Positions 15,285-17,227 of a DNA stretch of 46,262 bases are shown one piece after another. The position numbers were made by a program, and so were the translations under genes. Positions within the stretch are counted from its first letter, which is position 1; each line of letters opens with the position of its first letter. Below the pieces are notes generated by a model that searched no databases, was not told where the DNA came from, and was given only the letters and a program-made list of their open reading frames with translations. The DNA is from a virus. The stretch lies in the IMG/VR virus record IMGVR_UViG_3300020020_000063, positions 1 through 46,262 of that record; one strand, 5' to 3'.

Positions 15285-15496
15285 AGCAATTCACAGTCGA
15301 GATTAACTCCTCCGTTCTCGTGAGGCGGCGGCACGAACTCACAGTTCTTGCGGAGAACTGGCCAACGGCTCAATCAAGGGCCATTGATCAGGTCCGCAAG
15401 ATCATCAGCGACAAAGAGCTTGTCGTTGGTGACCCAAAGAAAATCAAGGAGGAAGAAATTGAAGAGGTTTTTCTGCCTACTGGCAGTTCTAGTTAG
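15281..15496 (+). CDS. small hypothetical protein, 71 aa
   Basis: Not recognised. The N-terminal part is beta-like (KQFTVEINSSVLVRRRHELTV) followed by a helix (WPTAQSRAIDQVRKII) and a charged tail, resembling small phage alpha/beta domains. Its end overlaps the ribosome site and start of the secreted protein at 15459. Confidence 0.5.
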   Translation: MKQFTVEINSSVLVRRRHELTVLAENWPTAQSRAIDQVRKIISDKELVVGDPKKIKEEEIEEVFLPTGSSS

Positions 15497-16025
15497 TCTT
15501 GTTTCTGCGACGCTGATTGGAGTCTCAACGGCTCCTGCTGGTGCTTCGTGGTTTCCGTACGCCGCTGATCAGACCCACTACGTGGATGAATGGTTTGGTC
15601 AGGGGAATTGGGTTTATAACTTCAAGATTTCTCGGCGTCAGTCGGGCACTCTTGTGTGGTTCGTGGTTGATGTTCATAGGTACGGCTACGACGGTAGTTA
15701 TCAGGCCCACGAACTTCACCATTGGATGGGTGACTCGGCTTGTCCCACTCTTGAGTGGACGCCAAACGGCGGCTGGTCGATTTTCGTTCGTACCCACCAG
15801 TTCATTCCTGGTGGTACTCGTCAGCTTTGTGTGGCTCCTGGTTCACAGGGTAGCTACATTGATGAGGTTGACGTGGTAAATGGTACGAACTATAATTACT
15901 CTTACAATCCTCAGAATCAGCAGTATACTCTTGAGGGTACTCATGGAGGGTATGAGTACGGCTCTCGGGTTTATCTGGAGCGACACTTCTGGACCGATTC
16001 GGTCTGGCAGTTCTCTGGGTACTGA
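15459..16025 (+). CDS. secreted paralogue family protein 1, 188 aa
   Basis: TTG 15459 is chosen because AAGGAGG stands six bases upstream and the codons that follow form a signal peptide (KRFFCLLAVLVSLVSATLIG, cleaved near APAGA). The mature protein is rich in Tyr, Trp, His and Gly; the pattern VHRYGYDGSYQAHELHHWM-GDSAC is shared in outline with the two next genes. It is probably a compact beta-rich extracellular protein with disulfides. Function unknown; no catalytic motif of a known hydrolase is visible. Confidence 0.65.
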   Translation: MKRFFCLLAVLVSLVSATLIGVSTAPAGASWFPYAADQTHYVDEWFGQGNWVYNFKISRRQSGTLVWFVVDVHRYGYDGSYQAHELHHWMGDSACPTLEWTPNGGWSIFVRTHQFIPGGTRQLCVAPGSQGSYIDEVDVVNGTNYNYSYNPQNQQYTLEGTHGGYEYGSRVYLERHFWTDSVWQFSGY

Positions 16026-16035
16026 TGATTAGTTG

Positions 16036-16067
16036 AAAGAAGCCCCGACTTCGGTCGGGGCTTCTTT
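16036..16067 (+). terminator. Rho-independent terminator
   Basis: AAAGAAGCCCCGAC (16036-16049) pairs with GTCGGGGCTTCTTT (16054-16067) around TTCG, a 14-bp stem with a stable tetraloop and short U-run. Confidence 0.85.
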
Positions 16068-16111
16068 AGTTGAGGGGCTCATCCCTCTACTTGACAACCT
16101 AAAGGAGTGAA

Positions 16112-16645
16112 GTGCGGAGAGTTTTAGTTGCAATTCTCATGGCCATTGGAGTTCTGACTACGGCGGTAGTTACCGAGGGCCTGGAGGCTACACCCGCCGC
16201 AGCGTATCAAGTCGTTGAGCATAGATACCAAGTTCTTAGTGGTAGCTACTGTTACGACGTCCAGATCAAGGCTTTCTGGCCCGAACACCTCACCACTCTG
16301 AATGTTTATACATTCACCGGTGATTGCTCACAGTACATTAGACATGAGATTGCTAGTCAGTCTCATGACTATGCGTGCTACCATCGGGATGGACAGTTCA
16401 TCACTGTCTATGCAAAGGAAGCCGTTGGTAACTCTGGGGATTGTAGTGGATACAATGCCGATGAGAACAACCTTTGCACAACTGCCTACGTAGTTGGTGG
16501 TTCAGGTGGACATGGGTGGAAGGGCTTCACCAACGGTGGGGCCGGTTGTCCTTATAACCAGTACACTGGTTGGTTTGCATATGGTCCTAACGCCTTGTTC
16601 GGTTACCACCATCCCGGACCAAATCCGGCCTGGTATCTCTGGTAA
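16112..16645 (+). CDS. secreted paralogue family protein 2, 177 aa
   Basis: GTG 16112 follows AAAGGAG. Signal peptide: VLVAILMAIGVLTTAVV, cleavage after PAAA, residue about 31. The mature part begins YQVVEHRYQV like a repeat of the third paralogue's YVTHVDRDYV, contains LNVYTFTGD and RHEIASQSHDYACY, and ends with a Gly/Tyr-rich part (GWFAYGPNALFGY). At least six Cys suggest disulfides. Paralogue of the products at 15459 and 16658. No known family recognised. Confidence 0.65.
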   Translation: MRRVLVAILMAIGVLTTAVVTEGLEATPAAAYQVVEHRYQVLSGSYCYDVQIKAFWPEHLTTLNVYTFTGDCSQYIRHEIASQSHDYACYHRDGQFITVYAKEAVGNSGDCSGYNADENNLCTTAYVVGGSGGHGWKGFTNGGAGCPYNQYTGWFAYGPNALFGYHHPGPNPAWYLW

Positions 16646-16657
16646 GGAGGATCAACA

Positions 16658-17227
16658 ATGCGTAAGGCGATCATTGCAATTGTTGTAGCACTGGCTGCAT
16701 TGGTAGTCGGTGCTCCACCCGCTAGCGCATACGTCACGCATGTCGATCGTGACTATGTCTATTCAGCAGCTAATCTCTATGAGGTTGCTGTTGACCATCA
16801 TAGCAATGGCGTTCAGGAATTGAATGTCTATCGCTACAACTGGGAGGGAACACAACTCCTTAGTCACGAAGTGCATCACCAGATGTACAACTTCGTTTGC
16901 TATCAGATTCAGCCTCGGACATGGCGTAGCAATTGGCCGCAACCGGGCGGGTATTGGGATGAAGCGAAGTTGATCATTCGGTCGAACTATACGTTTGGCA
17001 CTGGTGGAGGCGGTGGCTCAGCGTCAGGGTGCGATCATCCAAACGATACATGGAACGGTTGTAACTCGGCCGTACACGTTTGGGCCGAGAATGGCGGAGT
17101 AAGAGGACGCACCGCCGATGGTTGGGATTGTCCGTGGTCGTTCCCTACTGGACATATTGCCTACGGTTACAATGCTCCCCTAGTTAGCTTTGGTACTTGG
17201 AATACTTGGGGACACTGGTTGTTGTAA
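16658..17227 (+). CDS. secreted paralogue family protein 3, 189 aa
   Basis: ATG 16658 follows AAGGAGG. Signal peptide: KAIIAIVVALAALVVGA, cleavage after ASA, residue about 24. The mature part is closest to paralogue 2: LNVYRYNWEG, SHEVHHQMYNFVCY, a Gly-rich insert (GGGGGS), and GHIAYGYNAPLVSFG. Three consecutive genes of the same fold just before the endolysin suggest a cell-envelope role, such as helping lysis or acting on neighbouring cells. This is inference from context. Confidence 0.65.
   Translation: MRKAIIAIVVALAALVVGAPPASAYVTHVDRDYVYSAANLYEVAVDHHSNGVQELNVYRYNWEGTQLLSHEVHHQMYNFVCYQIQPRTWRSNWPQPGGYWDEAKLIIRSNYTFGTGGGGGSASGCDHPNDTWNGCNSAVHVWAENGGVRGRTADGWDCPWSFPTGHIAYGYNAPLVSFGTWNTWGHWLL

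What the first reader, a model, noticed from the sequence alone, without database searches (positions are those of the whole stretch)
15459..17227. Three tandem secreted paralogues of unknown fold next to a CAP protein and the endolysin
Three successive genes encode proteins of 177-189 aa with signal peptides and shared patterns (LNVY..., HE..HHQM...C, YGYN). Together with the CAP protein just upstream they form an exported module seldom seen in phages. They may alter the host envelope, protect the infected cell from other phages, or act on neighbours after lysis.
Basis: partly seen in the sequence, partly recalled or inferred. Interest (0 to 1): 0.7.

Follow-up and report, generated by a model that had tools for sequence, protein, structure and literature searches.

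The report
Phage-encoded secreted orphan protein trio
A short-tailed virus of actinobacteria carries three small genes for exported proteins, two of them duplicates of each other and none with any detectable relative, in a genome slot where related viruses keep other, unrelated exported proteins; this looks like a swappable kit for changing the outside of the infected cell, but what the proteins do is unproven.

Summary
The three genes are real: 15459-16025 (P1, TTG), 16112-16645 (P2, GTG) and 16658-17227 (P3, ATG), each with a ribosome-binding site and a clear Sec signal peptide ending in AxA. "Three paralogues" is only partly right. P2 and P3 are paralogous in their mature parts (0/5000 shuffles reach the score); P1 matches P3 only marginally (39/5000) and P2 not at all. 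The neighbours are as described: a CAP-domain secreted protein and an amidase endolysin. The window is a genome related to Jasmine-type actinobacterial podoviruses. No relative of the trio was found in Pfam, PHROGs, NCBIfam, PADLOC, PDB, 50,697 phage records, IMG/VR, plasmids (P3 only), GTDB contigs (P2/P3 profile), 396 genomes of the phylum, or 50 kin records. AlphaFold models are too poor to name a fold (pLDDT 45-49), but both give an all-beta outline. New here: the trio lies between a helicase and a Cas4-like nuclease, and in 3 of 8 kin with both flanks that interval holds unrelated secreted orphans. P2-P3 are bracketed by two strong terminators. Best reading: moron-like exported accessory proteins acting on the envelope of the infected cell, most likely superinfection exclusion; lysis help is the main rival. 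The mechanism is inferred, not shown.

The parts
15459..16025 (+). P1, secreted 188-aa protein; signal peptide about aa 1-29; HELHH at aa 84-88; weakly similar to P3
   Evidence: TTG start with SD AAGGAGG; SP call; marginal P3 similarity
16112..16645 (+). P2, secreted 177-aa protein, 6 Cys in the mature part; paralogue of P3 lacking the second His of HExxH (HEIAS)
   Evidence: GTG start with SD AAAGGAG; paralogy
16658..17227 (+). P3, secreted 189-aa protein, 4 Cys; paralogue of P2; HEVHH at aa 70-74
   Evidence: ATG start with SD AAGGAGG; paralogy
16036..16067 (+). intrinsic terminator-like hairpin (14-bp stem, TTCG loop) between P1 and P2
   Evidence: folded -25.6 kcal/mol in its flanks
17242..17273 (+). 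intrinsic terminator-like hairpin (14-bp stem, TTCG loop) between P3 and the endolysin
   Evidence: folded -26.7 kcal/mol in its flanks
14468..15178 (+). secreted CAP-domain protein with signal peptide and T/P-rich linker
   Evidence: PF00188 E=1.7e-7, above the curated cut-off
17290..18042 (+). N-acetylmuramoyl-L-alanine amidase endolysin, no signal peptide
   Evidence: PF01510 E=2.7e-11; phrog_1493 E=6e-26
9475..9783 (+). lipoprotein-like small exported protein (lipobox-like AGAGC) in the same interval
   Evidence: sequence and SP call
11583..12326 (+). T-rich-linker protein with FPNTG motif, TM helix and basic tail but no signal peptide; kin G007 has the same architecture at L107:8120-8827
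4738..6111 (+). left flank of the cargo interval: helicase
   Evidence: phrog_62 E=3e-55
18979..19932 (+). right flank of the cargo interval: Cas4/RecB-like nuclease
   Evidence: homologous to Jasmine RecB-like gp44 and ctEqG8 PD-(D/E)XK nuclease

Best explanation
The trio is accessory (moron-like) cargo of a Jasmine-type actinobacterial podovirus, placed in a variable slot of the early/replication operon that repeatedly receives genes for exported proteins. Shown: the ORFs, signal peptides, P2/P3 duplication, bracketing terminators, lack of relatives, and the recurrence of unrelated exported ORFans in the same interval of kin phages. Inferred: during infection the proteins leave through Sec, lose their signal peptides, fold outside the membrane (even numbers of Cys, likely disulfides, beta-rich), and stay in or on the wall of the still living cell, where they mask or alter receptor or wall sites so that competing phages cannot adsorb or inject (superinfection exclusion). 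Rapid swapping of unrelated proteins in the slot fits an arms race at the cell surface. Confidence is about 0.8 for 'exported accessory cargo' and about 0.35 for 'superinfection exclusion or envelope masking'.
For: Signal peptides without anchors on all three, with SD sequences. P2/P3 duplication. The genes lie on the + strand with helicase, nuclease, primase and polymerase, opposite to the virion genes on the - strand. P2-P3 lie between two 14-bp terminator hairpins. The helicase-nuclease interval holds 5 signal-peptide ORFs of 21 in the window against 0 of 19 on the same strand elsewhere (Fisher p=0.03, slot chosen after seeing the data), and unrelated secreted ORFans in G007, G021 and ctEqG8. 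No Pfam hit to an integrase and no other large ORF that could be one, so no sign of lysogeny. No virion-family match. Known precedent of exported phage proteins acting at the surface: the Ltp superinfection-exclusion lipoprotein (PMC3952083).
Against: No functional evidence. The adjacent amidase makes lysis equally easy to imagine. Known exclusion proteins are mostly lipoproteins or membrane proteins and these have no anchor, so they could diffuse away. The slot enrichment rests on a home-made signal-peptide rule and few genomes (pooled kin p=0.09).
Confidence: 0.35

Rival explanations
1. Lysis accessory module: the CAP protein and P1-P3 are exported ahead of the amidase and weaken or bind the actinobacterial wall or outer layer (spanin- or LysB-like in role), so that the endolysin can finish lysis.
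For: Direct neighbourhood CAP-P1-P2-P3-amidase on one strand. CAP proteins are secreted and in bacteria are often wall-linked (general knowledge). Kin G007 also has a PG-binding, lysin-like gene (L107:11779-12927) 1.1 kb from its secreted ORFan.
Against: No enzyme signature in P1-P3. Terminators separate P2-P3 from both P1 and the amidase. Kin phages have lysins without such genes next to them: Jasmine keeps both lysin genes and the holin in the structural half. Sec export of a wall-damaging protein with early genes would risk premature lysis.
Confidence: 0.25
2. Diffusible effectors: secreted or released proteins that act on neighbours, as bacteriocin-like toxins or as inhibitors of extracellular enzymes or predators.
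For: Soluble secreted, Cys- and aromatic-rich, duplicated and rapidly diversified small proteins are typical of antagonism genes (inference); no anchor or wall-binding domain found.
Against: No immunity-like partner is evident, no similarity to bacteriocin or toxin families, and the benefit to a virus without signs of lysogeny is indirect.
Confidence: 0.15
3. Secreted zinc metallopeptidases: P1 (HELHH) and P3 (HEVHH) carry an HExxH motif at the same aligned place, P2 being an inactive copy (HEIAS).
For: The motif is present in both and expected in only about 2% of shuffles each; the aligned position is the same.
Against: No peptidase family matches. Metzincin or snapalysin third ligand at +10 is absent (A in P1, V in P3). 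Both models place the motif on a beta strand, not a helix, though at low confidence. The motif could be shared for structural or metal-binding reasons.
Confidence: 0.08
4. Virion or tail-tip proteins that merely resemble secreted proteins.
For: Actinophage genomes have many unassigned virion genes (general knowledge).
Against: Genuine AxA signal peptides; location in the replication operon on the strand opposite the virion genes; no PHROG structural match.
Confidence: 0.05

Closest known systems
Secreted YkwD-like CAP protein of Bacillus phage Stills (PMC4541274)
   Same: a secreted CAP-domain protein encoded by a phage, role unknown
   Different: has LysM, siphophage of Bacillus thought possibly temperate; concerns only the neighbour, not the trio
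Ltp superinfection-exclusion lipoproteins of Streptococcus thermophilus phages (PMC3952083)
   Same: small phage-encoded proteins exported to the cell surface
   Different: lipoproteins of temperate phages; P1-P3 have no lipobox; sequence similarity was not tested directly
Podovirus Jasmine and kin (Jasminevirus, Arthrobacter; PMC5513430)
   Same: same lineage: capsid 37-38% identical, shared helicase, nuclease, primase and polymerase order
   Different: Jasmine has no secreted ORF between helicase and nuclease and is the wrong place to look for the trio: no tblastn match in phage records
Secreted 224-aa ORFan of kin contig G007 (L107:14027-14701)
   Same: same slot, 0.6 kb upstream of the Cas4-like nuclease, same type of signal peptide
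   Different: no similarity of the mature part above shuffled level to P1 or P3, weak with P2 (149/5000)

Membership tests
P1-P2-P3 as one paralogous family | significant similarity of mature parts, P2 vs P3 | tested here: met
   score 106, z=10, 0/5000 shuffles
P1-P2-P3 as one paralogous family | significant similarity of mature parts, P1 to either | tested here: inconclusive
   P1-P3 z=3.3 (39/5000); P1-P2 z=-0.6; hhalign of the P2/P3 profile with P1 prob 41, E=3e-4
Zincin metallopeptidases | HExxH motif | tested here: met
   P1 HELHH, P3 HEVHH; P2 lacks it
Zincin metallopeptidases | metzincin/snapalysin third ligand HExxHxxGxx(H/D) | tested here: not met
   position +10 is A in P1 and V in P3 (read)
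Zincin metallopeptidases | motif in an active-site helix | tested here: inconclusive
   both AF2 models show a strand there, but mean pLDDT is 45-49
Superinfection-exclusion proteins | exported or membrane-located phage protein | tested here: met
   Sec signal peptides
Superinfection-exclusion proteins | blocks adsorption or injection of other phages | not testable with these tools
   needs an expression and plating assay
Phage lysis proteins | wall-active or membrane-disrupting domain | tested here: inconclusive
   no Pfam/PHROG lysis match for P1-P3; neighbour is an amidase
Moron (accessory gene with its own transcription signals) | absent from close relatives | tested here: met
   no match in 50 kin records, though some of those are fragments
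Moron (accessory gene with its own transcription signals) | own promoter and terminator | tested here: inconclusive
   P2-P3 lie between two terminator hairpins; no own promoter identified between the first hairpin and P2
CAP superfamily (neighbour 14468-15178) | Pfam CAP above the curated cut-off | tested here: met
   32.5 bits against cut-off 21.1

The most novel reading that the evidence does not exclude
Jasmine-type actinobacterial podoviruses keep a dedicated, fast-turnover cassette between helicase and nuclease that arms the infected cell with exported proteins (secreted trio, CAP, lipoprotein, FPxTG wall-type protein), remodelling its surface before lysis: a virus-made temporary exterior of the infected cell, with new protein folds.
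Probability: 0.2. Interest if true: 0.75.

Novelty: new variant of a known kind. Interest (0 to 1): 0.4.

Why it matters
Exported proteins of phages without signs of lysogeny are little studied; known surface-acting phage proteins come mostly from temperate phages. A recurrent slot that trades unrelated secreted ORFans in a widespread environmental lineage (391 capsid relatives in IMG/VR) would show that such phages also invest in altering the outside of the cell they are about to destroy, and gives a defined set of genes to test.

Tried and rejected
Family scans: Pfam, PHROGs, NCBIfam and PADLOC gave nothing for the trio, nor did the PDB by sequence. Relatives: tblastn against phages with P1, P2 and P3 and against plasmids with P3 only, five pattern scans of IMG/VR with P1, P2, P3 and two profiles, and one scan of GTDB contigs with the P2/P3 profile found none; the only phage row was a chance-level P1 match (E=0.6) to a Streptomyces phage tail protein. 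396 genomes of the host phylum and 50 kin phage records also had none. The same search tool finds P2 with P3 at E=1e-6, so relatives at about 30% identity should have shown. Structure: AlphaFold of P3 (with P2) and of P1 (with P2, P3) reached only pLDDT 45 and 49. Foldseek gave no hit at E<=0.001 and VIA-align best Z 6.9 to unrelated sheets, which is not interpretable. The zincin idea was examined and set low. The idea that the syntenic G007 secreted protein is homologous to P1 was rejected: only the signal peptides align. Internal duplication within P1, P2 or P3 was not seen. A frameshifted, signal-peptide-bearing start for the FPNTG ORF was rejected because kin G007 has the same SP-less architecture.

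Full report
What was checked. P1 starts at TTG 15459 (188 aa), P2 at GTG 16112 (177 aa) and P3 at ATG 16658 (189 aa). Each has a good ribosome-binding site and an N-terminus of basic residues, a long hydrophobic stretch and an AxA site, with no later membrane helix. The upstream neighbour 14468-15178 is a secreted CAP protein (PF00188, 32.5 bits against a cut-off of 21.1) and the downstream neighbour 17290-18042 is an amidase endolysin (PF01510; phrog_1493).

Are they paralogues? With signal peptides removed, P2 and P3 align over nearly their whole length with score 106, ten standard deviations above 5000 shuffles and never reached by one. P1 and P3 align around VDVHRYGYDGS-YQAHELHHWMGDSAC / LNVYRYNWEGTQLLSHEVHHQMYNFVC with z=3.3 (39 of 5000), and P1 and P2 not at all. 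A profile of P2/P3 aligned to P1 by hhalign picks the same stretch of about 60 residues (E=3e-4, probability 41). So there is one proven pair and one possible distant third.

What the genome is. The + strand carries helicase, Cas4-like nuclease, Sak4-like ATPase, primase/helicase, polymerase and WhiB; the - strand carries terminase, portal, capsid and other virion genes. The capsid is 37-38% identical to Arthrobacter phages Jasmine, Adat and relatives and 34-35% to Microbacterium phage Shocker and ctEqG8. [quoted passage not shown] An alignment of five capsids found 391 relatives in IMG/VR, the closest long ones at 59% (G002) and 57% (G007). WhiB and capsid relatives on contigs of a Solirubrobacterales MAG and of Streptomyces griseosporeus point to an actinobacterial host. 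Pfam and PHROG scans of the large ORFs found no integrase.

Relatives of the trio. None was found: curated libraries, PDB sequences, phages (P1, P2, P3), plasmids (P3 only), IMG/VR, GTDB contigs (P2/P3 profile), 396 genomes of the phylum and 50 kin phage records. The search finds P2 from P3 at E=1.2e-6, so its reach extends to about 30% identity. AlphaFold on such shallow alignments gave mean pLDDT 45 and 49. Both models show an N-terminal signal helix followed by antiparallel strands, four in P1 (aa 38-91, pLDDT 57-77) and five in P3; fold searches with them are not interpretable.

The slot. The trio lies between the helicase and the Cas4-like nuclease. In G007 a secreted 224-aa ORFan (L107:14027-14701) ends 0.6 kb before the homologous nuclease. 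In ctEqG8 a secreted T-rich-tailed protein (L004:23045-23596) and in G021 two tandem secreted ORFs (L120:2739-3487) sit in the same interval. Among nine genomes where both flanks were found, four (the window and these three) have convincing signal-peptide genes there; Jasmine, G014, G016 and G041 have none and G015 only a doubtful call. The mature proteins show no convincing similarity to each other apart from T-rich low-complexity stretches. In the window the interval has 5 signal-peptide ORFs among 21 against 0 of 19 elsewhere on that strand (Fisher p=0.03); pooled for G007, ctEqG8 and G021 p=0.09. The signal-peptide rule was home-made and the slot was noticed before the test, so this is a lead, not proof. 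In addition, P2-P3 are enclosed by two near-perfect 14-bp hairpins with TTCG loops and T-rich ends (16036-16067, 17242-17273); similar hairpins occur elsewhere along the operon.

Mechanism. The data show exported accessory cargo. That the proteins act from the outside on the envelope of the still living infected cell is inferred from Sec export and from company with replication genes rather than virion genes. Superinfection exclusion is preferred because surface conflict explains both export and fast replacement of unrelated proteins in one slot. Lysis help is the main rival because of the CAP and amidase neighbours; against it stand the terminators that separate the units, and Jasmine, whose lysin genes and holin lie in the structural half. 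Diffusible antagonists, metallopeptidases (HExxH in P1 and P3, but wrong third ligand and predicted strand) and virion proteins are less likely.

Known or new. A secreted YkwD-like CAP protein of unknown role is on record for Bacillus phage Stills (PMC4541274), and exported exclusion lipoproteins for temperate streptococcal phages (PMC3952083, abstract). The trio itself has no detected relatives, and I know of no description of the helicase-nuclease slot as a home of secreted proteins, though only an open-access library was searched. The kind (exported phage accessory genes) is known; the proteins and their arrangement are a new variant.

Noticed in passing
window 11583-12326; L107:8120-8827: Both the window and kin G007 have, just before the Zn-ribbon/DUF pair, a protein without signal peptide but with a T-rich linker, an FPNTG/FPVTG sortase-like motif, a TM helix and a basic tail. 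The N-terminal domains are not similar; how such a protein would reach the surface without a signal peptide is unclear.
   Followed up: partly
window 9475-9783: Small lipoprotein-like ORF (lipobox-like AGAGC) in the same operon: another exported protein.
   Followed up: no
window 3255, 7598, 8115, 10956, 16036, 17242, 18697, 21230, 26788: Perfect hairpins of 11-15 bp with short loops, many terminator-like, spaced along the early operon; the whole window has far more stems of 9 bp or more than shuffles (mean 1.25).
   Followed up: partly
window 13880-14470: tRNA-like stretches before the CAP gene: ARAGORN reports one odd tRNA (14098-14167, two-base anticodon), and similar T-arm-like sequences (GGTTCGATTCC) lie near 13930 and 14445; kin ctEqG8 has tRNA genes in the same interval.
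   Followed up: no
L104:18830-19470: Kin contig G030 has two tandem secreted Cys-rich ORFs (101 and 108 aa), outside the helicase-nuclease slot.
   Followed up: partly
L124 and L123: Contigs of Streptomyces griseosporeus and of a Solirubrobacterales MAG carry capsid genes 40% identical to the window's, hinting at hosts of this podovirus group.
   Followed up: no
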